A stretch of DNA of 21,013 nt from Lithacetigena sp037446255 [NCBI: Coprothermobacterota bacterium]. Lineage in GTDB: Bacteria; Coprothermobacterota; HKB111. The position numbers and the translations under genes were made by a program. Shown here piece by piece: positions 1 through 21,013 of the stretch. The stretch lies in the NCBI GenBank assembly GCA_037446255.1, contig JBBIIY010000007.1, positions 37,750-58,762 of the forward strand, written 5' to 3'. Under the pieces are notes generated by a model, which was not told where the DNA came from, searched no databases, and was given only the letters and a program-made list of their open reading frames with translations. How positions within the stretch are numbered: the stretch's first letter is position 1; each line of letters begins with the position of its first letter.

Positions 1-472
1 TACCCGGGTTAATAGTCAGGCTGGTGGCATTGGTAGTGGCCCAGCTTAAAACCGAAGATTGACCTGTGTAAATAGTGGAAGGGTTCAAGTTGGCAGTAAT
101 AATGGGAGCAGCGATGTTATTATTTCTAATAGTGGAGTGAATTTCAGATATTTGGGCCAAAGTAGAAGCATCATAGAAGCGAACGGTTATATTTTTTAAG
201 TAAATGTCACCGCTTTGATCTTGAATTATTTCATATCGGAATCTATTATCCAAAGGATAGGCTCGCTGGGAAATACCAAAATTTGTATTAAAAGAACTGT
301 TTACTATCATTTCCAATTCTTTTTGAGAGTAAGAATAAGCCAAAAGCTTCATTTCCACCGGGGCATCGCTTCTTAAGGATATAGCGAAGGCATAAGATAA
401 TCCGCTAACAATTACTGAAAGGATGGTCATAGCTATAATTACTTCAATCAGAGTATAGCCCTGGTTTTTCAT
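1..472 (-). CDS. Type IV prepilin-like protein with Ig-like C-terminal region, partial
   Basis: The gene starts with ATG at 472 and stays open to the left edge (157 codons visible), so its 3' end is missing. The N-terminus reads MKNQGYTLIEVIIAMTIL. This is a short basic leader, the prepilin peptidase site G|Y, Glu at +5 of the mature protein and a hydrophobic helix, as in PilV/PulI-type minor pilins. From about residue 123 (PIITANLNPSTI, then SSVLSWATTNATSLTI) the sequence matches the Ig-like stalk domains common in bacterial surface proteins. The start codon overlaps the stop of the upstream PilX-like gene as ATGA, so translation is probably coupled. Likely role: a minor pilin exposed at the pilus tip, possibly adhesive (inference). 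The exact subfamily is uncertain because the C-terminus is missing. Confidence 0.8.
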   Translation of the reverse strand, partial: MKNQGYTLIEVIIAMTILSVIVSGLSYAFAISLRSDAPVEMKLLAYSYSQKELEMIVNSSFNTNFGISQRAYPLDNRFRYEIIQDQSGDIYLKNITVRFYDASTLAQISEIHSTIRNNNIAAPIITANLNPSTIYTGQSSVLSWATTNATSLTINPG

Positions 473-945
473 CGTCCCTTGGTATTATCCTCCCAGTAGA
501 TTAACTTGTAGGTGGAAAAATTATAAATTACCTTTAAAACTCTTTTTGCCTGACGGGGCTGGTTTAGTGGGACAGTAGCTTCCGAAATCAGAGTGGTTTC
601 GTTTCCCGAAGCAGTTCTGCTAACTGAAATACCCCCCTGGTAAGAACCGGGTTGTCCCGGGAAAAAAGTTTGGCTTTCTGAATAAGGGTTAGCCACAGTT
701 TCATTATTACGCAATTTTTGAATAACTTTGTTGATTCCGGATTCCGCCAGGTATAACGCCTGCATTCGGTAGGCTTCCACTTCCGAAGTAAGCGCTGCAG
801 CCTGGTAATAGGTTATTAAGGCTATAGCAAGGACAGATGAAATTACCAAGATCAAGGTTACCAGTATTAAAGTAACCCCTTGCTGGTTATTTCCAAGTTT
901 ATTTATTTTATTTTCCCTGCTTTCTTCAAAATTATATATCACCAT
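469..945 (-). CDS. PilX/GspK-like minor pilin component
   Basis: A protein of 158 residues. A hydrophilic leader of about 22 residues ends in QQG, followed by VTLILVTLILVISSVLAIAL and then an AYRMQALYLAESGINK segment. The helix followed by 'A-x-x-LAESG' is typical of the PilX N-terminal family and of GspK. The mature helix has no Glu at +5, as in GspK, which caps the pseudopilus tip. The start is ATG at 945, preceded by only a weak GGGTG Shine-Dalgarno-like sequence and by 19 bases after the pilO stop. It overlaps the next prepilin by 4 bases. Likely role: part of the minor-pilin complex that initiates pilus assembly at the inner membrane. The length is short for GspK and fits PilX better. 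The family is fairly sure, the exact orthology is not. Confidence 0.75.
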   Translation of the reverse strand: MVIYNFEESRENKINKLGNNQQGVTLILVTLILVISSVLAIALITYYQAAALTSEVEAYRMQALYLAESGINKVIQKLRNNETVANPYSESQTFFPGQPGSYQGGISVSRTASGNETTLISEATVPLNQPRQAKRVLKVIYNFSTYKLIYWEDNTKGR

Positions 946-964
946 ACACCCGAGTTAAAAATTG

Positions 965-1531
965 TCAATCAGGAAGGCTGTAAGGAATTAGCAAAACCAG
1001 GTTTACAAAGTAGTTATTTCTATCAAAGACCAAGTTGATAGAGATTAATTTGATTTCTTTCTGCAGGGTGTTTTCCAGGTATTTAGCAAAAGCCAGGAAA
1101 GAATTTTCTGAACCCCTTAGAGATAAAGAAAGCTTTTGATAGGCAATTTCAAAGCTTCCAGGCTCAGGGGCTTCTTCTGGTCCAATTGCCACATTGGTTA
1201 CTGTAAGACCTAAATTGATTAAAGTTTGAGGAAGCGTTTTCTGGAAAAAAGCTACCTCATTTTTAGTGAATAATTTTTTTCTGGAGTTTTCTATGGAGTC
1301 TTGAATTGAAGGGATAGTATCCTTCATAGATTGTAGGGCTTGAAGTTGTTGTTCTTTTTCTTTAAGGGAGGATGCCAAAGTGTTTAACCTGGTTATATCT
1401 CTAAAGTAAATGAAGGTTAAACTTCCCACTGAAATTAACCCGATTATGATTATGCCCAGAATCGCCTGGAGTAAAAATTTATGTATTTTAACTAAAGGTG
1501 AAATAAATTCTTTATTATTATCCATCTTCAC
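965..1531 (-). CDS. pilO: Type IV pilus assembly protein PilO
   Basis: A protein of 188 residues with a short cytoplasmic N-terminus and one membrane helix at about residues 19-45 (FLLQAILGIIIIGLISVG). A coiled coil follows at about 50-90 (SSLKEKEQQLQALQS), and then a compact alpha/beta domain. This is the PilO/GspM layout: a bitopic inner-membrane protein that dimerises with PilN and aligns the pilus platform. The position directly after pilMN, with a 4-base ATGA overlap (ATG at 1531), supports the call, because pilM-pilN-pilO is a conserved order. Sequence conservation in PilO is low, so the call rests on topology and context. Confidence 0.8.
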   Translation of the reverse strand: MKMDNNKEFISPLVKIHKFLLQAILGIIIIGLISVGSLTFIYFRDITRLNTLASSLKEKEQQLQALQSMKDTIPSIQDSIENSRKKLFTKNEVAFFQKTLPQTLINLGLTVTNVAIGPEEAPEPGSFEIAYQKLSLSLRGSENSFLAFAKYLENTLQKEIKLISINLVFDRNNYFVNLVLLIPYSLPD

Positions 1532-2958
1532 TTGAGAATCAACTCCATAGATGATAAATATTTAGCACCCACCTGAGAAAAGTCCCTTATAACTACTGTA
1601 GTAAAAAAGTTAGTGTTAATTAAAGCATCTCTATACTGGTAAGCAGGTTCAAAACCTGGAGAAGAAATAGTAAGGTATATATTTTTTTCTCCATCAAAGG
1701 AGAAGCTTTCAATAATAATTCCTTTGGTCAACTTGGCAAAAACCCCTGAAAACTGTTTATATACCTCTTTCCTGGAATATTTATTTATTAAAACTTTCCA
1801 GTCATCATCCTGCTGTTTGAGATGGTTAAATTCGTTTTCCACGGGTAGATACTCAGTTAAAGATTCAGATAAGGCAGAAATGTTGGTGGTGGTAATCTCA
1901 ATGTTAGAGGTGGTAACCTCTCGGTTAGTTTGCAGGTAATAACCCAGAAAGGAAAAACCAGCCAGCAAGGATAGGGTTATCAGGGAATAGGCACATACTT
2001 TAAAAATATTTTTTCCTTTATTTTTTATATCTTCCGGTATCAAGTTGATAAGTATTTTGCTGTCAATCTTGCTTAAAGTAAGGCCCAAAAGTGAACTGTT
2101 TTGGAAAGCACTATCGGCTAAATTTACATTGGAATAGTTTAACTGGGCGCAACTTTCGAGGTTAATAAATTCCGAGCTGATTCCAGTTGAGTTTTTTAGA
2201 GATTCCAGGAGGTTGGACCGAAAATCAGGCAGTTTATTAATAAAGGTTTTGCATATACTGCCAGCAAATTCTTTGGAAAAGAAGGAAAAGGTGTTGTTGA
2301 TTTCCCTTAACCATTGATGGAGACTTTCGCTTTGAGAGAGGTCCTTTTCACCGAAATTGAAAGAACGGTAAAATAATAAATCCTCACCCTGGGAAATAAA
2401 GATAGCGGTTTCATCGTGGCTTACATGAATATAGCACCACTGTTTATCACCTGGATATTCTTTGTATAAATATCTCACTGCCCGATAAGCGGCTACGGAG
2501 GAGTCTTCCAGAATAATAGTTTTTAACCCGGATCTCTTCAGTATACCGAGCCACCTGAGGATAACACTTCTTTTTGAACCAACTGTTAGATACTTTATCC
2601 TGTCATCCCTGATAGACACGGGGGTATAGGAGATAACTGCAAAATCATCTTTAAAAGCACGGTAAGTGTAAAACTCGTCCCTGATGATTTTATAGGTGTC
2701 TTTAGCGGGCATGCGGGGTAATTCTATGATACGGGTAACTAAATCTTCATTGGGTAAGCCCACTATAGCCTTACGAGCCTTGAACTTACCTGATTTTAAC
2801 AGGTCTTTAATAAGTAAAACCATTGAAGGGTCGTCTAAGGTATTGGGAGTAGAGGTCTCGGAAAAGTTAATAATTTCAATATTTTCAGCGCTTTTTATCA
2901 AGGCTTCCAGAGCTTTTACCTGGTTTTTTTCAATTTCGATAACCAAGATTTTGTTCAT
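1528..2958 (-). CDS. pilMN: Fused PilM-PilN type IV pilus assembly protein
   Basis: A protein of 476 residues. Residues 1-295 resemble the cytoplasmic actin-like PilM, with VGLPNEDLVTRIIELP at 66-81 matching the PilM signature. Residues 302-476 look like PilN: the motif INLIP at 304-308, a membrane helix at about 320-341, a coiled-coil stretch and an alpha/beta domain. In most species the PilN N-terminal INLLP peptide docks into PilM as a separate protein. Here the two are one polypeptide, the layout of GspL in type II secretion. The usual actin-type phosphate loops are poor: position 6-12 reads VIEIEKN where D-x-G is expected, and 178-183 reads HVSHDE. ATP binding may therefore be lost (inference). 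It overlaps pilO by 4 bases. No clear Shine-Dalgarno precedes ATG 2958. Fused pilMN genes are reported in some Clostridia. Confidence 0.85.
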   Translation of the reverse strand: MNKILVIEIEKNQVKALEALIKSAENIEIINFSETSTPNTLDDPSMVLLIKDLLKSGKFKARKAIVGLPNEDLVTRIIELPRMPAKDTYKIIRDEFYTYRAFKDDFAVISYTPVSIRDDRIKYLTVGSKRSVILRWLGILKRSGLKTIILEDSSVAAYRAVRYLYKEYPGDKQWCYIHVSHDETAIFISQGEDLLFYRSFNFGEKDLSQSESLHQWLREINNTFSFFSKEFAGSICKTFINKLPDFRSNLLESLKNSTGISSEFINLESCAQLNYSNVNLADSAFQNSSLLGLTLSKIDSKILINLIPEDIKNKGKNIFKVCAYSLITLSLLAGFSFLGYYLQTNREVTTSNIEITTTNISALSESLTEYLPVENEFNHLKQQDDDWKVLINKYSRKEVYKQFSGVFAKLTKGIIIESFSFDGEKNIYLTISSPGFEPAYQYRDALINTNFFTTVVIRDFSQVGAKYLSSMELILK

Positions 2959-2979
2959 AATATATATTATTTTACAATA

Positions 2980-3423
2980 TTACTCTTCTTTTACAACCAC
3001 ACTGCCATCTATAAATAAATGAATAAAAGCGTAGTTGTTTTTTCGGGAAAGAGTTATTTTGCTTTCATTTTTAAAATTTCCACCACTTAATACCGTTATC
3101 TTTTCCTCAATATATATGTTTATATTCTCAAAAAATGGTGATTCTTCGTAAATAACTTCATCGGTAGTTAAATCAATGACTTTAAATCTGGTGTTATTTT
3201 CCGAAACCAGAATTAGATAATCTTTCCCCCTGATGATAGCCTGAATCTGGATATATTTTATCTCGGTGGCCATCCTCATAGCACTGGCGTAGAGATAAGT
3301 TTTTTGCACTTTCCTTTCCAGAGAAAGAATGCCGGTTATGGTTAAAGACAATAGAACAAAGATCAGGACGATAAGAAAAGAAGCTCTTATTTTGTAAGCG
3401 AGAAATGATTTATGCTCTTTCAT
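2980..3423 (-). CDS. GspH/FimT-like pseudopilin without a recognisable cleavage motif
   Basis: A protein of 147 residues. One membrane helix (about residues 13-32, ASFLIVLIFVLLSLTITGIL) is followed by a helix ending in EIKYIQIQAIIRGKDYLILV. That matches the 'LRLARSEAIRRG' segment of GspH/FimT minor pilins, and a beta-rich domain follows. The N-terminus lacks the G|F-x-x-x-E prepilin peptidase site. It is either a pseudopilin that stays in the membrane or one processed differently. It begins 10 bases after the terminator that follows the major pilin gene and ends 21 bases before pilMN. No Shine-Dalgarno is seen at ATG 3423. Expression probably depends on read-through of that terminator. Confidence 0.6.
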   Translation of the reverse strand: MKEHKSFLAYKIRASFLIVLIFVLLSLTITGILSLERKVQKTYLYASAMRMATEIKYIQIQAIIRGKDYLILVSENNTRFKVIDLTTDEVIYEESPFFENINIYIEEKITVLSGGNFKNESKITLSRKNNYAFIHLFIDGSVVVKEE

Positions 3424-3433
3424 CGGGAGATAA

Positions 3434-3462
3434 AAAAAGGGGGTTTATTAAACCCCCTTTTT
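3434..3462 (-). terminator. Perfect-stem Rho-independent terminator after the major pilin gene
   Basis: Arms 3434-3446 and 3450-3462 pair perfectly over 13 bp around a 3-base loop. A GGGGG/CCCCC core is flanked by A and T runs, so the hairpin can act in both directions. It lies between the major pilin stop (3473) and the next gene (3423). It probably trims most transcripts after the abundant pilin and lets a fraction continue into the assembly genes. Confidence 0.9.
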
Positions 3463-3472
3463 AGTCTAAGGT

Positions 3473-3838
3473 TTAAGGATGTCCTGTTCCGGTTATAACA
3501 CCAGAAGTTGCGTTGTAAACCCATAGTACTTTAACGCCGGTAGTTGGAAGCCCATTACATTCTATAGATGAATTTGCAGGATAGTAACTCCAACCTGCTG
3601 GAGTTTCATGGAGGGTGTTAGCAAAGAAGTTGGCGTTGTTAGGTGGGAAGACCTTATTCTTGGCAAAATAGGTCATAACCCCTGCCCTTATGGAACCAAT
3701 AACAGCTGCATCAGCTGCTATGTGCGCATCGTCCCTGAGTTCCTGGTATCTGGGGAAAGCTACAGCAGCTAAAATACCCAGAATAACAATAACGATGGCT
3801 AATTCAATCAAAGTAAATCCTTTTTGGTTTTTTCTCAT
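3473..3838 (-). CDS. pilA: Major type IV pilin (PilA-like)
   Basis: A protein of 121 residues. [27 protein letters not shown] gives a 7-residue leader, the cleavage site before Phe, Glu5 and the conserved hydrophobic assembly helix. A short globular domain of about 85 residues follows ([11 protein letters not shown]...), ending in TGTGHP. The start is ATG 3838 because AAAGGAG lies 8 bases upstream. The TTG at 3856 in the same frame would overlap this ribosome site and is rejected. Its own promoter and 5' hairpin lie upstream and a strong terminator downstream, as expected for the abundant fibre subunit. Only one cysteine is visible, so the usual C-terminal disulfide loop is absent. It is assembled into the pilus by PilMN/PilO and by motor proteins encoded elsewhere. 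Confidence 0.92.
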
Positions 3839-3866
3839 TTTTCTCGCTCCTTTCAATAAATAATAT

Positions 3867-10600: not shown

Positions 10601-11281
10601 TTAATTGCCCCTCTTCACTTTTAAATGCACCATAGACTTGGTGGGTATTTTCTGGCCTTCCTTAGGGAATTGTTCAGTTATCAGGGCAGTTTTATCTTTA
10701 TTAAGTTCATCAGGAGTAATAATTCCTAATTGCAAATCATATATTTTTAATATTTTTTCAGCTTCCTCCACGGTTATGCCGGTTAATAAAGGTACTTCCA
10801 CCCATTTGCCCAAACTGATGGTCAGGGTTATCCCTTCACCCCGGTAAGCAACAGTTTTAGGTAGGGGCGATTGCCCAAGAATGATGCCGGAAGGAGTTTT
10901 TTCGTTTTCTTCAAAAAAAAGGTCCTTGACAACCAAACCTGATTTTCTCAGGGTTTTTTCCGCTTCTATGTAAGGTAACCCCAGGAGGTTAGGAATTTGC
11001 ACCTCCGAAGTACCTAATCCCACTACCACATAAACTACGCTTCCCTTTCTGGCTAACAGTTTGCTACGAGGATTCTGGTTGAGAATCCTGCTTTCTGAAG
11101 TATCTCCCAGGTCAATACTCTCCTTTATTTCCATGGAAAGGCCAACCAGGGATAATCTTTGCCTGGCTTCGCTTAGAGAAAGTCCTTCAATTTCCGGAAC
11201 CATTACCTGTTCGGTGGAAGTTATACAACCAGATAATGACAAGATGAAAACCAGGGCTAAAACTATGCCGATTTTACTCAT
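10601..11281 (-). CDS. PASTA-domain lipoprotein without a kinase domain
   Basis: A protein of 226 residues. A lipoprotein signal peptide ends in LSLSGC with the lipid-bearing Cys at 19. Three PASTA domains follow at about 24-91 (VPEIEGLSLSEARQRL), 92-156 (IPNLLGLPYIEAEKTL) and 157-225 (VPLLTGITVEEAEKIL). PASTA domains bind muropeptides or beta-lactam-like ligands in PrkC/StkP-type kinases and PBPs. Here there is neither kinase nor transpeptidase, so it is probably a membrane-anchored cell-wall binding protein. It overlaps the end of fmt by 8 bases and lies 2 bases before rpe. That is the place where many Bacillota carry rsmB-rlmN-stp-prkC-rsgA. It may derive from the PASTA part of a lost PrkC (inference). 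Confidence 0.88.
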   Translation of the reverse strand: MSKIGIVLALVFILSLSGCITSTEQVMVPEIEGLSLSEARQRLSLVGLSMEIKESIDLGDTSESRILNQNPRSKLLARKGSVVYVVVGLGTSEVQIPNLLGLPYIEAEKTLRKSGLVVKDLFFEENEKTPSGIILGQSPLPKTVAYRGEGITLTISLGKWVEVPLLTGITVEEAEKILKIYDLQLGIITPDELNKDKTALITEQFPKEGQKIPTKSMVHLKVKRGN

Positions 11282-12221
11282 TTTGAAATAACCTTTCAGT
11301 TTCCCGAAAACCTTTCAGAAAAGGAGCCATAAGTAAAGCTTTTTTCCCGGGTCTTTGAACCTCTAATATTTCCACCCACCCTTCACCGCTTTTAACCAAA
11401 AATTGTTCCTGAGTTATCAGGAAATAACCGGGTTTAGTGGGTAATATGGAACTATTTACCTCACTCAAATTTATATCCCCGGTAAAAGCCCTGGCTTTTA
11501 ATATTTTCCATTCTTCTTTATTATAACGGGCAATTGCCCCTGGTTGATAACTGAGGGCTCTTACCAGGTTAACAATATCTTTAGCGTTTTTATTCCAATT
11601 AATATATCTTTCTTCTTTTTCAATACGGGTAGTATAGGTGGACTGGCTGTGGTCTTGTGGTTTTGCCTTGATTGCAGATTTTTCTATTTTCTTTATGGTT
11701 TCTATCAAGAGTTTTGCTCCCACATCTGCTAACTTCTGGCTCAAGGAACTATAATTATCATCATCATTTATGGGAACTTCTAACTGACTCAGGATTTCAC
11801 CCTCGTCATAATTTAAGGAGACAGTATGTATGGTTACCCCGGTTAAGGTTTTACCTTCCATTATTGCCCGGCGAATGGGTGAGGCTCCCCGATAACAGGG
11901 AAGCAATGATGGGTGAAGATTAATCTCACCCAGGGGAAACCGATTGATAAATTCCTGGGGAATCTTTAGTCCGAAAGCTACGCAGACCAGCAGGTCAATT
12001 TCCTGCAAGAAGGGCATGGTAAAACTTCTAAGGGTTTCCACCTCATAGGATAAAATATTCATGGTTTGGGCTTCTTTGCCCACTACTGTCTGTTCAATTT
12101 TTTGACCGCGCCCTTTTATTTTTTCTTTGCGGGTAATAACCGCTTTTAGCCATCCTTCCTGATAAAGGCGTCTTAAGGGAATAAGGGCGAATTTATCACA
12201 ACCAAGGAAAAGTATTTTCAT
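11274..12221 (-). CDS. fmt: Methionyl-tRNA formyltransferase
   Basis: A protein of 315 residues, normal length. It formylates initiator Met-tRNA with 10-formyl-THF. The catalytic Asn-His-Asp set is N101, H103 (INLHPSLLPCYRGASPI, 100-116) and D139 (LNYDEGEIL). FGLKIP (83-88) corresponds to the usual FGQ-x-(I/L)P. A C-terminal OB-like domain starts near residue 205 (ERYINWNKNAKDI). The N-terminal GTP-x-FA motif is replaced by GCDKFA (7-12), a divergence that leaves the active site intact. It sits between def and the PASTA gene. No good Shine-Dalgarno is seen at ATG 12221, which is 37 bases after the def stop. Confidence 0.93.
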   Translation of the reverse strand: MKILFLGCDKFALIPLRRLYQEGWLKAVITRKEKIKGRGQKIEQTVVGKEAQTMNILSYEVETLRSFTMPFLQEIDLLVCVAFGLKIPQEFINRFPLGEINLHPSLLPCYRGASPIRRAIMEGKTLTGVTIHTVSLNYDEGEILSQLEVPINDDDNYSSLSQKLADVGAKLLIETIKKIEKSAIKAKPQDHSQSTYTTRIEKEERYINWNKNAKDIVNLVRALSYQPGAIARYNKEEWKILKARAFTGDINLSEVNSSILPTKPGYFLITQEQFLVKSGEGWVEILEVQRPGKKALLMAPFLKGFRETERLFQNE

Positions 12222-12258: not shown

Positions 12259-12759
12259 TCAAGTGGCAAATAATTCAGGATGATCTTCATGAAAAAGTTG
12301 GGTAGGGTCTTCCATCCTGTCCACAAATAAGATACCATCAAGGTGGTCTATTTCATGCTGAACCACCCTGGCTGGTAATCCTTTTAAATCCATTACCAAA
12401 GATTCGCCTTTTTCGTTCAAGGCTTTGAGTTTTATTTCCCGATACCTCTTTACTTTTCCATAAAGTCGGGGAAGACAAAGGCATCCTTCGTAGTCTTCTT
12501 CTTCCCCCCGGGAGCTTACTATTTGAGGGTTAATCAGGGAGATAATTTCTTCAGATTTCGTGTCCTTCAAAAGAACAATAATTACCCTTAAGTTTACTCC
12601 CACCTGGGGAGCGGCCAGGCCAACTCCTTTTACGGGTGAGGTTTTCAATGTATCAATCATATCGTTAATTAAAATATGAATTTCAGGAGTTATTCTGGTA
12701 ACTTCCTGACTTACTGTTCTTAAAACTGGGTTTCCTGCGTTAATTATTTCTCTAACCAT
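12259..12759 (-). CDS. def: Peptide deformylase
   Basis: A protein of 166 residues. It removes the N-formyl group from new proteins using a catalytic metal. All three motifs are present: GVGLAAPQVG (45-54), EGCLCLP (91-97, metal ligand C93) and QHEIDHLDG (134-142, ligands H135 and H139, catalytic E136). The second motif has Cys-Leu where Ser-Val/Ile is common. It is encoded one base after the priA stop and just before fmt, the paired enzyme of formyl-Met metabolism. Confidence 0.95.
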   Translation of the reverse strand: MVREIINAGNPVLRTVSQEVTRITPEIHILINDMIDTLKTSPVKGVGLAAPQVGVNLRVIIVLLKDTKSEEIISLINPQIVSSRGEEEDYEGCLCLPRLYGKVKRYREIKLKALNEKGESLVMDLKGLPARVVQHEIDHLDGILFVDRMEDPTQLFHEDHPELFAT

Positions 12760-12760
12760 T

Positions 12761-14986
12761 TCACCAGGCCATTAATCCCGAAGGGTCAGGTATAATTGTT
12801 ATCCTGTCTCGCACAGACTTAAGTATATCAAAAAGCCTTAAACTTTCGCTTATTTTTATATCTCCTTTGAGAAGAACCACGCTCAAATACTTCCCTTCTC
12901 TTTTTAAATGGAACAGATAGGTGTTGATGGTTTGCTCGAACTCTCTATCAAGCCAGCTTTTAATTAAAACTGCCTCTTTTTTAACAGTTTCTTTATCTAC
13001 AGAGGTAAGTGTCAGCATAATCAGCCTGGTGTAAGGTGGGTATTCAAAATTTCGGTATTTATCCAGGATTATTCCAGGCCAATCATTAGCAGTTTCTTGA
13101 ACATCTTGAGCATTTTTGTAGGTTAATAGATGAATTGGCTGACTGCTCCAGCTTGTTAAAAGGGAAATGTTTCTATACACCACTTCTTCTCCCTGGAAAT
13201 CGGGAAGGCTAAAGTTTAAATCGGGGTTACCATAAACACAAAAATCGGGCTTATAATCGTAAAAAAAAGAGAAAACCGCGTCAGTTCCTACCACCAATAG
13301 GGGTCGGACATTTTGAAGTTTATTTAAAATTTCCCTTCGGCCAATTTCATTAAGGGAATCAGCATCAATCCTGAGAGTGTCAACCTGAAAGAAGTTCTTA
13401 AGTTCTTCAGATATTCTCTGGGTGCCCACGCCCAATAAAACCATATCACCCTCAAAACATTCAGGACATTTTTCCTTTATGGTGGTGGAAAAGTCGCAGG
13501 TATGGCAATGGAGCTTACCGGTTTTAAGATGATAAACCAGGTTAGTCTGACAGTTAGGACATTTTGTTTGATAATTGCATTTACCACAGAGATAAACTGT
13601 ATAAAAACCCCTTCTATTCTGAAAATATAGTACACTTCCATGATTATCAAGGGTTTCTTTTATTGTGTTAAGGGTATCTCCTGGATAATAAGAATCTCTT
13701 TCTCTTGTTGGGATGATCAGGAGAGGTTCTTCAGGGTTAGTGGAAGTTTTGAAATACTGATATTTTGCGGTTTGGTGTAAATATAATAGGAGTGGAGTTT
13801 CCAAAGAAGAGGTAATTATTGTTGAGCATAAATTATTAGACTGAATAAACTCCAGGCAAGAATAAGCGTCAATACGGGGAGAGGTAAAGGTTTTAAAATT
13901 TCCGCTGCCAATCTCATCAAAAACAACTAACTGCAGATTTTTATAGGGAAGAAATAAAGACCTCATTCCTCCCACGATGATTTTTTTTGCTCCTAACCTG
14001 ATTTCTTCCCAATCTTTTAACTTCTGGTCGAGGGTTTTATACTCTGACCAGTGAAGAGGTTTTCTGCCAGTTTCTGTAAATAACTTTTTTTTCCAGTAAT
14101 AGGAGTGATACAAGCGTGAAGACAAAAATAACACCTGACCACCCTGCTTGATGGCTTTCCTGATTTTTTCCAGTACCAGAGATTCGCGTTCAGCTGGTGT
14201 TCCTTCAATTATCAGGTATTCTGGCTCGGGCTTAGGTATGGTTATTTTTTCCAAAGAAACTTCCTTGAGGAAAAGTTTCCCAGTTTCTACAAGTTTTTGG
14301 GTATCTTCAGGATGAGTAGGACTCCTCAACCTGGAAAAAGGGTTAGGAAAAGGTATCTCTATCTGCTTTTCCGTATCTTCGTAATAAAATATTTTAGCTT
14401 TCTGAAAAACTGTTTTCCGATAGGTGTATTGAAGGGGGTATATTTTAATTAACCCTTTATGGCTCAGGGCTTTTAATGTGGTTGAAACTCGGGTTTTAAA
14501 TTTTCTTTTTAAAGTATCCATGGTAGTTATCGGGTGTTCAATAAGGTATTCCAGCACATCTCCTTGAACGAAAGCACCTTTTTCTCTAATTTTTTTAAGG
14601 GTTTCCACAGCTGATTCCAGGTCTAATAATAACTTAACCATCTCTACCCCTTTCCCATATAAGGGGTGGGGCAGGGTAAATCTCAACGCTTGAAAAAAGG
14701 TGGTCAAATAATAGGCAGATGACCAGATCAGTAACTGGAGGAGAATCGGGGTAATCAGGGGTTCTTCGTCTATCACTTCCAGGATAGGTTTGACCTCTAA
14801 GGAATAATCTTTCTCATCGGTGGTTCCTAAAACCAACCCTACTGTGGGTTTGTCCCGAGGTCCAAAAGGTACCAGCACCCTACCACCAACAGGAGGTTCT
14901 GGCTGGGTTGACTGGTAGGAATATATAGATCTATGAAAGCTGTCCCCGGTATCAACAGCAACTCGTATTTGTTTATGATTGGCCAT
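12761..14986 (-). CDS. priA: PriA-family primosomal protein with degenerate helicase motifs
   Basis: A protein of 741 residues from ATG 14986 (a TTG at 14989 just precedes it). Residue numbers here count that TTG as 1. It keeps the PriA N-terminal DNA-binding region (PVGGRVLVPFG, 33-43), the winged helix and the whole zinc module. C468, 471, 477, 480, 495, 498, 508 and 511 have exactly the E. coli spacing. The ATPase is degraded: Walker A GVTGSGKT reads EGTPAERE (262-269), DEEH reads DEIG (358-361), and GSATP reads TSSLE. The motif V KG and the motif VI QVAGRAGR are absent. NRRGF (458-462) and GTQ (522-524) remain. Actinobacterial PriA is also helicase-dead, so this is probably a fork-binding loader scaffold rather than a motor. 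The reading frame is intact, which argues against a pseudogene. It heads the operon with def and fmt. A TATACT ends 7 bases before ATG, so the message could be nearly leaderless. Confidence 0.88.
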   Translation of the reverse strand: MANHKQIRVAVDTGDSFHRSIYSYQSTQPEPPVGGRVLVPFGPRDKPTVGLVLGTTDEKDYSLEVKPILEVIDEEPLITPILLQLLIWSSAYYLTTFFQALRFTLPHPLYGKGVEMVKLLLDLESAVETLKKIREKGAFVQGDVLEYLIEHPITTMDTLKRKFKTRVSTTLKALSHKGLIKIYPLQYTYRKTVFQKAKIFYYEDTEKQIEIPFPNPFSRLRSPTHPEDTQKLVETGKLFLKEVSLEKITIPKPEPEYLIIEGTPAERESLVLEKIRKAIKQGGQVLFLSSRLYHSYYWKKKLFTETGRKPLHWSEYKTLDQKLKDWEEIRLGAKKIIVGGMRSLFLPYKNLQLVVFDEIGSGNFKTFTSPRIDAYSCLEFIQSNNLCSTIITSSLETPLLLYLHQTAKYQYFKTSTNPEEPLLIIPTRERDSYYPGDTLNTIKETLDNHGSVLYFQNRRGFYTVYLCGKCNYQTKCPNCQTNLVYHLKTGKLHCHTCDFSTTIKEKCPECFEGDMVLLGVGTQRISEELKNFFQVDTLRIDADSLNEIGRREILNKLQNVRPLLVVGTDAVFSFFYDYKPDFCVYGNPDLNFSLPDFQGEEVVYRNISLLTSWSSQPIHLLTYKNAQDVQETANDWPGIILDKYRNFEYPPYTRLIMLTLTSVDKETVKKEAVLIKSWLDREFEQTINTYLFHLKREGKYLSVVLLKGDIKISESLRLFDILKSVRDRITIIPDPSGLMAW

Positions 14987-15068
14987 CAAATAAAGTATAC
15001 ACCAAACCCCCAGGTAAAGGTATTTTTCTTTCTGCCAGGTTTTTGGTATCTTTTCTGACGACTGTGAT

Positions 15069-17712: not shown

Positions 17713-20412
17713 CTAACACACACTGCCTATTAAGGTTTCGCCATCCTTCAACTTTTTAATCCTTACGGCAGTCACTTTGGTTTCTGGTGTTTTAGATACC
17801 GGGTCAAGCGCCAGATTGGTCAGCATATTGGTCGGTGTGTCGGCAAAATGAAAAGTCATGGATACTATACCCACAGGTGAAATACCGGTAACTTTTACCT
17901 TCACCACGATATCGCCTCTTCTTGAAATAATTTTAACATAGTCACCATCATTAATTTCCAACCTGAGAGCATCTAGGGGGTTTATTTCCAATAACTCTTC
18001 CTTCATCAACTGGTTTAACCCTTTTACTTTTCGGGTCATAGCAGCATGATAGTGGTACAAACTTCTTTTAGTGGTCAGGATAAAAGGAAAGTCGCTATCG
18101 GCTTCTTCAGCTGGCGGCCGGTAATCAAGAGGGGTAAATCTGGCCTTTCCACTGGGAGTTAAAAACTTATCTTTGTGTAAGTAGGGTGTACCGGGATGTT
18201 CGGGTGAGGGACAGGGCCACTGGATACCATTTTCTTCCAATCTCTGGTAACTTATACCACCATAGGAAGGTACCAGAGTGGAAATTTCTTTCATTATTTC
18301 TTCATTGTTCACATAATCAAAGATAGAAGCGTTCATTCTTTTTGCCAAATGGATTATGATTTCACTATCAGAAAGAGAATCTCCGACATGGTTAATAGCC
18401 TTTCTTGTTCTTTGTACCCTTCTTTCAGTGTTAGTAAAGGTGCCCTCTTTCTCGGCAAAACTGGAAGCTGGGAGAATAACCTGAGCATACTTTGAAGATT
18501 CGTTGAAAAATATATCTTGCACAATGACCAATTCTGCCCGGGAAAGAGCCTCGTGAACAACCCTGCTGCAGGCTACATTTACAGCTGGGTCGGCCCCAAT
18601 TAGATACAGGGCTTTGATTTTACCTGCAGAAATCGCTTCCAGAACCTCGGTCATGGTAAGCCCGGGGGTTTCATTTAATTCCACACCCCAGGCAGTGGAG
18701 AATTTTTCTCTAATAACCGGGTCGGCTACTTTTTGGTATCCTGGATAAACATTAGGCAGGTTACCCATATCGCAGGCGCCCTGAACATTATTCTGACCCC
18801 TTAGAGGGTTAAGCCCAGAGGAAGGCTTACCAATATTACCGGTAAGAAGTACCAAGTTGGCCAGTGCCAGAACATTGTCGGTTCCATGAGTATGTTGAGT
18901 AATTCCCATGGAATACAGGATAGTTGATGGCTTGTTAGTAGCATAAATCCGGGCAGCCTCTTTAATCTTCTCTTTACTTACCCCGGTTAATGTTTCAACT
19001 TTATCCAGGTCAAAATAAGCCAGTGATTTAACAAAATTCTCAAAATTTTCCGTTCTTTCCCTGATAAAATCAGCATCTTCTAACCCTTCATCCACAATAA
19101 CCCTGGCCATTCCCATAATCAAGGCCACATCACTACCGGGTTTCATGTTTAGCCAGCAATGAGCATTTTCCACCAGTTTTATTTTCAAGGGGTCAGCTAC
19201 AATTAATTTAGCTCCCTTTCTTACAGCTTCCCTAACCCGAGAGCCAATAACCGGATGGGCATCAGTAGTATTAGAGCCAATAACGAATATACATTCAGCA
19301 TCAGCTATTTCATCAATAGTGTTGGTCATTGCTCCACTTCCGAAAGCAGTGGCCAGACCGGCCACCGAAGGAGCATGGCAGAGACGGGCACAGTGGTCTA
19401 TGTGATTGGTTTTGATAATCCCCCGCGCGAATTTTTGTATCAGATAAGCTTCTTCATTGGTAAGTTTGGCCGAGGTAAAAAAAGCTACTTCATCACTTTT
19501 ATAGGATTCTAATTTACGGGCAACATAATTCAAAGCCTCATCCCAGGTGGCTTCCTCCAGGGTATCTCCCTTTCTCAGCAAGGGTTTTTTAATTCTCTCC
19601 GGGCTGTTAATAAACTCAAAACCATAACGGCCCTTTACGCAAAGTCTTCCTTTATTGGATGGGTTCTCTCCATCACCTCTTACAGAAACCACTTCCCTGC
19701 CTCTTACGCCTAAATATATGCCACAACCAACTCCGCAGTAAGGGCACACAGTTTTTACTTCTCTGGAAAAAACCTTATCATTCTTGGAGTATAAAGCTCC
19801 CACAGGGCATCTAACCACACATTCCCCGCAGGATTCGCACCTGGATTGGGCTATGGGTTTATCCGCAAAAGTTCCCACCAGGGTATTAAAGCCCCTGAAG
19901 GTAAAGTCTATGGCATTAGCTCCCTGTATTTCCTCACAGGTTCTAATGCAAATACCGCAAAGTACACACCGGTTATGGTCCCTTATAAAGAAGGGATTGG
20001 AATCATCGAGTGGCAAATCACGGGTAATTTTTCTGAGTTTATTGATTCTTTCTTCATCAATTCCCAGGTAATGGGAAATTTTTTGTAATTCACATTTAGT
20101 ATCCCTGGGACAGGAAAGACAATCAGCGTGATGGTTAATTATCATCAACTCCGTGGCTGTTTTCCTTATTTGAGTGAGAACGACGCTTTCAGTAATAATC
20201 TCCATTCCTTCTTCTGCTGGAGTCATACAGGAGATAGTTACCCTTCCGTTTATCTCCACCACACAAAGGCGACAACCACCAAATGGTTTCAACTCGGGAT
20301 GAAAACATAAATGAGGCAGGTATATTCCGTTTTCCAATGCTGTTTCTAATACAGTTTTTCCTTTTCTGGTTTTAACACTGAAGCCATCAAAATTTATAGT
20401 AATCGTTTCCAT
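17713..20412 (-). CDS. fdhA: Formate dehydrogenase alpha subunit, NuoG-like multi-cluster type
   Basis: A protein of 899 residues. It oxidises formate to CO2 (or the reverse) at a bis-MGD Mo or W centre. In order: a 2Fe-2S domain (C36, C47, C50, C62); a His-ligated 4Fe-4S (H94, C98, C101, C107); two 4Fe-4S ferredoxin clusters (C149/152/155/159 and C192/195/198/202). A further 4Fe-4S precedes the catalytic domain (C223, C226, C230, C258). The active-site segment is CARLCHAPSV with Cys345 where many homologues have selenocysteine, so no UGA recoding is needed. NPLRGQNNVQGACDMG is also conserved. The start is ATG 20412 because AAGGAGG lies 6 bases upstream; a TTG at 20439 is rejected. The NuoF-like partner ends 10 bases before. 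Together they fit a cytoplasmic NAD-linked, possibly bifurcating, formate dehydrogenase (HylA-like). Confidence 0.9.
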   Translation of the reverse strand: METITINFDGFSVKTRKGKTVLETALENGIYLPHLCFHPELKPFGGCRLCVVEINGRVTISCMTPAEEGMEIITESVVLTQIRKTATELMIINHHADCLSCPRDTKCELQKISHYLGIDEERINKLRKITRDLPLDDSNPFFIRDHNRCVLCGICIRTCEEIQGANAIDFTFRGFNTLVGTFADKPIAQSRCESCGECVVRCPVGALYSKNDKVFSREVKTVCPYCGVGCGIYLGVRGREVVSVRGDGENPSNKGRLCVKGRYGFEFINSPERIKKPLLRKGDTLEEATWDEALNYVARKLESYKSDEVAFFTSAKLTNEEAYLIQKFARGIIKTNHIDHCARLCHAPSVAGLATAFGSGAMTNTIDEIADAECIFVIGSNTTDAHPVIGSRVREAVRKGAKLIVADPLKIKLVENAHCWLNMKPGSDVALIMGMARVIVDEGLEDADFIRERTENFENFVKSLAYFDLDKVETLTGVSKEKIKEAARIYATNKPSTILYSMGITQHTHGTDNVLALANLVLLTGNIGKPSSGLNPLRGQNNVQGACDMGNLPNVYPGYQKVADPVIREKFSTAWGVELNETPGLTMTEVLEAISAGKIKALYLIGADPAVNVACSRVVHEALSRAELVIVQDIFFNESSKYAQVILPASSFAEKEGTFTNTERRVQRTRKAINHVGDSLSDSEIIIHLAKRMNASIFDYVNNEEIMKEISTLVPSYGGISYQRLEENGIQWPCPSPEHPGTPYLHKDKFLTPSGKARFTPLDYRPPAEEADSDFPFILTTKRSLYHYHAAMTRKVKGLNQLMKEELLEINPLDALRLEINDGDYVKIISRRGDIVVKVKVTGISPVGIVSMTFHFADTPTNMLTNLALDPVSKTPETKVTAVRIKKLKDGETLIGSVC

Positions 20413-20422
20413 CTTATCCTCC

Positions 20423-21013
20423 TTAGGTCCTTTCTGCAATTTCGTTTATTGTAGTGGCGGTTAAGTCTTTATTACCTGATAAACATTCCACAGCCCCAAA
20501 ACGAGCAGGACATACTTCCAGGCAGATACCGCACTTTATACAATCGTCCTGATTGATTTTATGAACCTGCTTTAGTCCGCCAGAAATAGCTGAAACCGGG
20601 CATTTCTTGAGGCAAATCATACAGGCTTTACACTTCTCTTCATTAATTTTATAGGTAATAAGCGCTTTGCAAGCTTTGGCAGGGCATTTATTTTCTCTTA
20701 TATGAGCTTCGTATTCATCACGGAAATATCTGATAGTAGTGAGTACCGGGTTAGGAGCAGTTTGCCCTAAACCGCATAAAGAACCTTTCTTGATAGATTC
20801 TGCCAATTCAACCAGTAAATCTATATCTTCTTCTTTACCTAACCCATTAATTATATCTTCCAGAATGGTTAACATTTCTTTGGTACCTAAGCGGCAGGGA
20901 ATACATTTACCACAGGATTCTTTCTGGGTAAAATCAAGGAAATATCGGGCTACATCAACCATACAGGTATCTTCGTCCATCACCACCATGCCACCGGAAC
21001 CCATAATAGAACC
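20423..21013 (-). CDS. NuoF/HydB-like NADH-binding subunit of formate dehydrogenase, partial
   Basis: Only the C-terminal 196 residues are in the window, open to the right edge ([16 protein letters not shown] is the usual NuoF segment). The N3-type 4Fe-4S ligands are in [13 protein letters not shown] and the later SLCGLGQ. Two extra 4Fe-4S ferredoxin motifs form the tail ([12 protein letters not shown] and [12 protein letters not shown]), as in HydB/HylB rather than NuoF of complex I. The missing part should bind FMN and NAD(H). The stop codon lies next to the GGAGG of fdhA, so the two are translated together. A NuoE-like subunit is expected just upstream, outside the window. Confidence 0.9.

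What the first reader, a model, noticed from the sequence alone, without database searches (positions are those of the whole stretch)
12761..14986. Full-length PriA that has lost its helicase motor but kept its zinc module
Aligned by eye to E. coli PriA, Walker A GVTGSGKT is EGTPAERE, DEEH is DEIG, GSATP is gone, motif V lacks its KG and motif VI QVAGRAGR is replaced. All eight zinc cysteines keep exact E. coli spacing, and NRRGF is conserved. The frame is open for 741 codons, so the protein is retained without ATPase. Helicase-dead PriA is known from Actinobacteria. In a Bacillota-like gene order it would be an independent loss and would imply replication restart by a fork-binding scaffold only.
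Basis: partly seen in the sequence, partly recalled or inferred. Interest (0 to 1): 0.7.

Follow-up and report, generated by a model that had tools for sequence, protein, structure and literature searches.

The report
PriA restart protein without its motor
A protein that restarts stalled DNA copying has lost the ATP-driven motor that most bacteria keep in it but has kept its DNA-gripping zinc part, and the same loss turns up in several other bacterial phyla, so the motor seems to be the dispensable half of this protein.

Summary
Confirmed. ORF 12761-14989 (-), 742 aa, is a PriA in the priA-def-fmt position with its ATPase/helicase motifs destroyed: 6 of 21 motor-motif residues kept against 13 of 13 in the zinc module. 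All eight cysteines have the E. coli spacing, and no helicase motif lies in another frame of the window.

Motor-dead PriA is a known kind: Deinococcus radiodurans PriA is a published pseudohelicase, and Actinobacteria have divergent PriAs. New is its spread. By motif reading the motor is lost in 30 of 30 Atribacterota PriAs read, 14 of 14 Aerophobota, 18 of 34 Bipolaricaulota, 8 of 26 Thermotogota, 1 of 21 Omnitrophota and 5 of 32 Actinomycetota (biased samples). All 76 keep all eight cysteines; 12 sampled pairs show purifying selection. One single origin is rejected on a 48-row set (p-AU 0.0004).

Whether the window's own loss is independent stays open: grouping it with Atribacterota, Aerophobota or Actinomycetota is not rejected, and no genome of this organism is held. 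Most likely role: an ATP-independent scaffold that recognises forks, holds lagging-strand ssDNA and recruits DnaB.

The parts
12761..14989 (-). priA, motor-dead primosomal protein N' (742 aa, TTG start; ATG at 14986)
14669..14962 (-). 3'-DNA-binding domain, residues 10-107
   Evidence: Pfam PF17764, 5e-18; coordinates
14447..14569 (-). probable winged-helix segment, residues 141-181
   Evidence: inferred from its place between the 3'BD and lobe 1 in the alignment; coordinates
14183..14206 (-). erased motif I (Walker A): EGTPAERE, residues 262-269
   Evidence: alignment; coordinates
13907..13918 (-). degraded motif II: DEIG, residues 358-361 (D-E kept)
13793..13813 (-). degraded motif III: TSSLETP, residues 393-399
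13604..13618 (-). conserved NRRGF, residues 458-462
13457..13588 (-). cysteine-rich zinc module, residues 468-511, eight Cys in E. coli spacing
13265..13288 (-). erased motif V: GTDAVFSF, residues 568-575 (GT kept, KG lost)
13139..13162 (-). erased motif VI: LLTSWSSQ, residues 610-617
12764..13057 (-). C-terminal domain with the conserved YPP, about residues 645-742
   Evidence: alignment; Pfam PriA_C only sub-threshold (0.065)
12259..12759 (-). def, peptide deformylase (positional marker)
   Evidence: NCBIfam TIGR00079 above cut-off
11274..12221 (-). fmt, methionyl-tRNA formyltransferase (positional marker)
   Evidence: NCBIfam TIGR00460 above cut-off

Best explanation
This is the organism's PriA, turned into a pseudohelicase. 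It cannot bind or hydrolyse ATP in the normal way, because the P-loop lysine and the motif VI arginines are gone (inferred from sequence). It still recognises abandoned forks through its 3'-binding and winged-helix domains, holds lagging-strand ssDNA with the cysteine-rich module, second lobe and C-terminal domain, and recruits DnaB (probably through a DciA-type loader). It can therefore restart only forks that already carry lagging-strand ssDNA, or that another helicase has opened. Shown: motif loss, conservation of the zinc module, place beside def-fmt, and purifying selection in sampled motor-dead PriAs of other genomes. Inferred: loss of ATPase, the scaffold role, the partners.
For: Motor 6/21 against zinc module 13/13; zinc spacing, and no strict motif in any frame; PriA domain matches; place beside def and fmt, an order also seen with PASTA in 7 of 7 Atribacterota stretches (rpe too in 3), though there with about 2 kb between fmt and PASTA. 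In 76 other motor-dead PriAs: eight Cys in 76 of 76; G429, G490, P310 and P631-P632 at 100% (rounded); K230 15%, G229 3%, R587 5%. dN/dS 0.11-0.26 in 12 hand-picked pairs. D. radiodurans PriA lacks measurable ATPase, unwinds negligibly, yet binds forks within about twofold of E. coli PriA and interacts with DnaB (PMC4504706: abstract, passages, part 1 of 2 of the Results read). In E. coli, PriA ATPase is stated not to be required for PriA-PriB restart in vivo, and the CRR, HD2 and CTD frame an ssDNA pore (PMC10175261, passages).
Against: No ATPase, binding or restart test exists for this protein. By one alignment the window also lost positions that the other motor-dead PriAs keep at 100% (rounded), P253 and R625, so it is unusually degenerate. 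The C-terminal domain is below Pfam's cut-off. The AlphaFold model failed (mean pLDDT 36), so there is no fold evidence. No genome of the organism is held, so DnaB, the loader and a second PriA could not be checked. DciA was found in 75 of 80 genomes, motor-dead and motor-intact alike, so it does not discriminate.
Confidence: 0.8

Rival explanations
1. The window's motor loss is not a separate event but one old loss shared with Atribacterota and perhaps Aerophobota.
For: priA-def-fmt-PASTA order in 7 of 7 Atribacterota stretches, with rpe in 3; AU tests do not reject window+Atribacterota (p 0.41, 0.29, 0.22) or window+Aerophobota (p 0.30); all 30 Atribacterota and 14 Aerophobota PriAs read are dead.
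Against: Neither the PriA tree nor the MtaB tree joins the window to them; identity is no higher to them than to intact PriAs (19-25% over); the same order as far as PASTA also occurs beside an intact PriA (L242).
Confidence: 0.45
2. It is a diverging paralogue and an intact PriA is encoded elsewhere in this genome.
For: Cannot be excluded: no genome is held; very long branch (2.81).
Against: It sits beside def and fmt. In 76 genomes chosen because their phylum or own PriA was motor-dead, the listed matches show two long PriAs in one genome only (G087; one copy read, dead); all other second matches listed are short or fragments; the list is cut at weak matches.
Confidence: 0.1
3. It is a decaying pseudogene.
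For: Loss of catalytic motifs and a long branch.
Against: 742 codons open; zinc module 13/13; dN/dS 0.11-0.26 in 12 pairs of other motor-dead PriAs (not the window itself).
Confidence: 0.03
4. It is no longer a restart protein but a repurposed ssDNA/zinc protein.
For: More degenerate than other motor-dead PriAs at some scaffold positions.
Against: 3'BD, zinc module, lobe 2 remnants and the C-terminal PP are recognisable.
Confidence: 0.08

Closest known systems
Deinococcus radiodurans PriA pseudohelicase (Deinococcus-Thermus; PMC4504706)
   Same: PriA with degraded Walker A and B, no measurable ATPase, negligible unwinding, DNA binding and DnaB interaction kept
   Different: There the lysine of GKT is an arginine in a poor but recognisable motif; here motifs I, V and VI are erased outright. 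The passages I saw describe logos of 100 PriAs from 18 phyla and name Deinococcus-Thermus as the exceptions.
Actinobacterial PriA (PMC1193525, one passage: smaller and very divergent)
   Same: Motor motifs lost, zinc cysteines kept in 5 of 5 dead ones read
   Different: Different residues at the lost motifs; 27 of 32 Actinomycetota read are intact, but these were the best scorers, and 32 of 60 genomes fall below the helicase model's cut-off.
Atribacterota / Aerophobota / Bipolaricaulota / Thermotogota motor-dead PriAs (found here)
   Same: Same pattern of erased motor and fixed zinc cysteines; Atribacterota also share priA-def-fmt-PASTA
   Different: Mostly 20-30% identical to the window over long stretches, up to 40% over the short 3'-binding domain; def and fmt were not seen beside priA in the six stretches of Aerophobota, Bipolaricaulota and Thermotogota looked at.
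E. coli PriA (PMC10175261, passages)
   Same: Domain plan and zinc spacing
   Different: Active helicase; its ATPase is stated there not to be required for PriA-PriB restart in vivo

Membership tests
PriA (primosomal protein N') | 3'-DNA-binding domain | tested here: met
   PF17764 5e-18, above its cut-off
PriA (primosomal protein N') | Cysteine-rich module with eight zinc cysteines inside lobe 2 | tested here: met
   PF18319 above its cut-off; identical spacing
PriA (primosomal protein N') | C-terminal domain | tested here: inconclusive
   PF18074 0.065, below its cut-off; aligned YPP and terminal P kept
PriA (primosomal protein N') | Position beside def-fmt, as in many bacteria (that it is common is my knowledge) | tested here: met
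   also in 7 of 7 Atribacterota stretches and L242
PriA helicase (TIGR00595 and other NCBIfam PriA models) | Score above the curated cut-off | tested here: not met
   TIGR00595 172 bits against 230; all 14 PriA models below cut-off
PriA helicase (TIGR00595 and other NCBIfam PriA models) | Walker A lysine and motif VI arginines | tested here: not met
PriA pseudohelicase (D. radiodurans type) | No ATP hydrolysis or unwinding, fork and DnaB binding kept | not testable with these tools
   sequence prediction only
PriA pseudohelicase (D. radiodurans type) | PriA domain plan with degraded Walker A/B | tested here: met

The most novel reading that the evidence does not exclude
PriA has lost its motor repeatedly across bacteria: on these data once inside Thermotogota, at least once inside Bipolaricaulota, in all Atribacterota and Aerophobota PriAs read, in part of Actinomycetota, in Deinococcus-Thermus (published), and in the window's own deep lineage. 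In large parts of bacterial diversity the conserved core of PriA would then be an ATP-independent fork-recognising, ssDNA-threading scaffold, with the helicase an optional module, and many genes now named 'replication restart helicase PriA' would not be helicases.
Probability: 0.75. Interest if true: 0.65.

Novelty: new member of a known kind. Interest (0 to 1): 0.5.

Why it matters
Why PriA carries a helicase that E. coli can do without is an old question. Lineages that erased the motor while fixing the zinc module are natural experiments that separate fork recognition and DnaB recruitment from unwinding. The finding also shows an annotation trap: of 76 genomes chosen because their phylum or own PriA was motor-dead, 45 hold a match above the cut-off of the 'replication restart helicase' model TIGR00595, and the PriA of each of those 45 was read here as motor-dead.

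Tried and rejected
Placing the organism: no genome held. The PriA query found no relative in genome contigs. In plasmids it found 71 records, the best at 29% identity. Window PriA was searched in the genomes of 44 of those 80 loci and in whole or sampled phyla: at best 34% over a stretch that includes the zinc module and 42% over the short 3'-binding domain. MtaB searches and one MtaB tree left the window unresolved; in that tree I labelled L339 (genome G136) plain Bipolaricaulota, before one search showed its PriA to be dead. A guess that the window is Bacillota or Atribacterota could be neither shown nor refuted.

Structure: AlphaFold on the window protein alone gave mean pLDDT 36 and was not used for a fold search. 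I did not hand in genome-search loci, which that tool's text does not list.

AU test on 100 rows did not finish. It was redone on 48 chosen rows under a simpler model; that p-value rests on the smaller set, counts the window among the dead rows, and was asked after the first tree had been seen.

DciA as an explanation for tolerance of motor loss: present in 75 of 80 genomes, dead or intact, so uninformative.

Sampling limits: the loci read were mostly the best-scoring against the window PriA (or against TIGR00595 for Actinomycetota), and the 20 extra loci were mostly chosen next to known dead handles, so the fractions are not prevalence estimates. Rows dropped before counting: L174-L178, L204, L208 (same genes as other rows) and frames under 380 aa (L153). 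Two Atribacterota rows (L083, L137) do not cover motif I and were called by motif VI. L179 (Thermotogota, truncated, motifs II-VI present) is counted as neither. 'Intact' needed only K, DE and RxxR: several Bipolaricaulota rows so classed have DEEG and other variants. Of the 76 dead rows, 12 keep one and 2 keep two of G229, K230, R587.

Literature: eight searches of the open PMC library; from their listings, and passages of six papers, I saw no report of motor-dead PriA outside Deinococcus-Thermus and divergent Actinobacteria. Most subscription papers are not in that library.

Full report
WHAT IS THERE. The ORF 12761-14989 on the minus strand encodes 742 aa from a TTG, or 741 from the next ATG. 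Pfam finds the PriA 3'-DNA-binding domain (5e-18) and the PriA zinc ribbon (1.7e-7), both above their cut-offs, and the PriA C-terminal domain only below its cut-off. Fourteen NCBIfam PriA models match, the best at 191 bits, all below their own cut-offs; the 'replication restart helicase PriA' model TIGR00595 gives 172 bits against 230. Solved PriA structures match at 6e-32. The gene is followed by def and fmt, then a PASTA-type protein, rpe and mobA (those three names are mine from sequence).

THE MOTOR IS GONE. In an alignment with full-length E. coli PriA and 11 relatives, motif I is EGTPAERE, motif II DEIG, motif III TSSLETP, motif V GTDAVFSF and motif VI LLTSWSSQ. I listed by hand 21 motor-motif and 13 zinc-module positions that are at least 90% conserved in 122 intact PriAs. 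The window keeps 6 of the 21 (D and E of motif II, T and P of motif III, G and T of motif V) and 13 of the 13 (Fisher p 4e-5). All 122 PriAs classed intact have G229, K230 and R587. Strict patterns for Walker A, DEEH, motif V and motif VI match in no frame of the window, so a shifted register is excluded for those patterns. The eight cysteines have the same spacing as in E. coli.

IT IS NOT ALONE. I read the same motifs in PriAs from other genomes with E. coli as the register. After removal of duplicate rows the counts are: Atribacterota 30 dead of 30 read (46 of 50 genomes had a match); Aerophobota 14 of 14 read (14 of 17 matched); Bipolaricaulota 18 of 34 read (82 of 100 matched); Thermotogota 8 dead, 17 intact and 1 truncated of 26 read (97 of 103 matched); Actinomycetota 5 of 32 read (60 of 60 matched); Omnitrophota 1 of 21 read (138 of 193 matched); Spirochaetota 0 of 20 read (140 of 149 matched); E. 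coli and 21 others 0 of 22. The loci were mostly the best-scoring, and many of the extra ones were chosen beside known dead ones, so these are not prevalences.

WHAT THE MOTOR-DEAD ONES KEEP. In 76 dead PriAs without the window, all eight cysteines are present in 76 of 76; G429, G490, P310, P333, P631 and P632 stand at 100% (rounded); K230 at 15%, G229 at 3%, R587 at 5%. None has all three of these catalytic residues, 2 have two and 12 have one. 'Dead' was defined by motifs I and VI, so the low motor figures are partly by definition; the zinc figures are not. Twelve hand-picked pairs of dead PriAs (66-94% identical) give dN/dS 0.11-0.26 over the gene, so these proteins are maintained; in two pairs dS exceeds 1 and the ratio is rough. 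In the zinc region the ratio was at most 0.28, with one pair saturated. The window itself departs from this set at two positions that are 100% (rounded) in the 76, P253 and R625.

HOW OFTEN THE MOTOR WAS LOST. With motif columns removed, a 100-row PriA tree needs at least five changes of state, and forcing all dead PriAs, the window included, into one clade is rejected on a 48-row set (p-AU 0.0004; simpler model, and asked after the first tree was seen). Within Thermotogota the eight dead rows form one starred clade nested among intact ones. Within Bipolaricaulota 17 dead rows form one starred clade with intact rows outside it, and one long-branched dead row stands apart. In the MtaB tree the two Thermotogota and three Bipolaricaulota genomes with dead PriA that were included under that label lie inside their phyla. 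Aerophobota and one Atribacterota group may share one loss (p 0.59).

THE WINDOW'S OWN HISTORY IS UNRESOLVED. Its PriA branch is 2.81 changes per column and no starred set holds it. Grouping it with either Atribacterota group (p 0.41, 0.29), both (0.22), Actinomycetota (0.34) or Aerophobota (0.30) is not rejected. MtaB also leaves it unplaced. Of seven Atribacterota stretches, priA-def-fmt-PASTA was seen in all seven and rpe too in three, but with about 2 kb between fmt and PASTA, which adjoin in the window. The order as far as PASTA was also seen in a genome titled Spirochaetota whose PriA is intact (L242), and def and fmt were not seen beside priA in six stretches of Aerophobota, Bipolaricaulota and Thermotogota.

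NO SECOND PRIA WHERE IT COULD BE TESTED. TIGR00595 was searched in 76 genomes chosen because their phylum or own PriA was motor-dead. The match list is cut at weak matches. In it only G087 has two long PriA matches, on two contigs, of which one was read (dead, L123); other second matches are short or fragments. The best match was 481 bits, against 495-652 for the 25 motif-intact Actinomycetota PriAs L199-L223, a thin margin and one phylum only. Seven of the 76 genomes have only weak matches and one (G195) a 255-aa fragment; they are probably incomplete. In 45 of the 76 the best match is above the helicase cut-off, and in each of those 45 the PriA was read here as dead, so the standard name misleads. 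The window's own genome could not be checked.

MECHANISM. D. radiodurans PriA, in which the Walker lysine is an arginine, shows no measurable ATPase and negligible unwinding, binds ssDNA and forks within about twofold of E. coli PriA, and interacts with DnaB (PMC4504706; abstract, introduction passages and part 1 of 2 of the Results read). In E. coli the cysteine-rich region, lobe 2 and the C-terminal domain frame a pore around lagging-strand ssDNA; an ATPase-inactive PriA is used in the in vitro DnaB loading assay, and ATPase is stated not to be required for PriA-PriB restart in vivo (PMC10175261, passages). The parts kept here are those parts. I therefore infer an ATP-independent scaffold that recognises forks with exposed lagging-strand ssDNA and recruits DnaB; duplex lagging arms would need another helicase or be ignored. 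DciA, the likely loader, has a match in 75 of 80 genomes of these phyla, dead and intact alike, so it fits but does not prove the model. A structure prediction without alignment failed (pLDDT 36).

NOVELTY. Motor-dead PriA is a known kind (Deinococcus-Thermus; divergent Actinobacteria, PMC1193525 passage). The window is a new and extreme member. Its recurrence in Atribacterota, Aerophobota, Bipolaricaulota and Thermotogota was not seen in print in eight searches of the open PMC library (listings, and passages of six papers).

Noticed in passing
window 10601-11281 (-): A PASTA-repeat lipoprotein-like protein without a kinase domain (my reading) lies between fmt and rpe, where Bacillota carry a PASTA kinase (my knowledge).
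   Followed up: no
window 1528-2958 (-): Looks like a PilM-PilN fusion in a type IV pilus cluster (2-3856), by sequence reading only.
   Followed up: no
window 17713-20439 (-): NAD-type formate dehydrogenase alpha subunit, up to 64% identical over a 331-residue core to genes of Dehalococcoidia; homologues scattered over many phyla suggest a mobile gene.
   Followed up: partly
L273 / L335 (genome G648): A genome drawn from the Omnitrophota phylum has a motor-dead PriA, and both its PriA and MtaB lie near the Atribacterota/Aerophobota rows: a mixed bin, mislabel or separate lineage.
   Followed up: partly
L355 (genome G136): A Bipolaricaulota PriA with motor motifs lost in another way, apart from the main dead clade and on a very long branch.
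   Followed up: no
L119 (genome G074) and other loci: TIGR00595 accepts motor-dead PriAs as 'replication restart helicase' at up to 481 bits: an annotation trap.
   Followed up: yes
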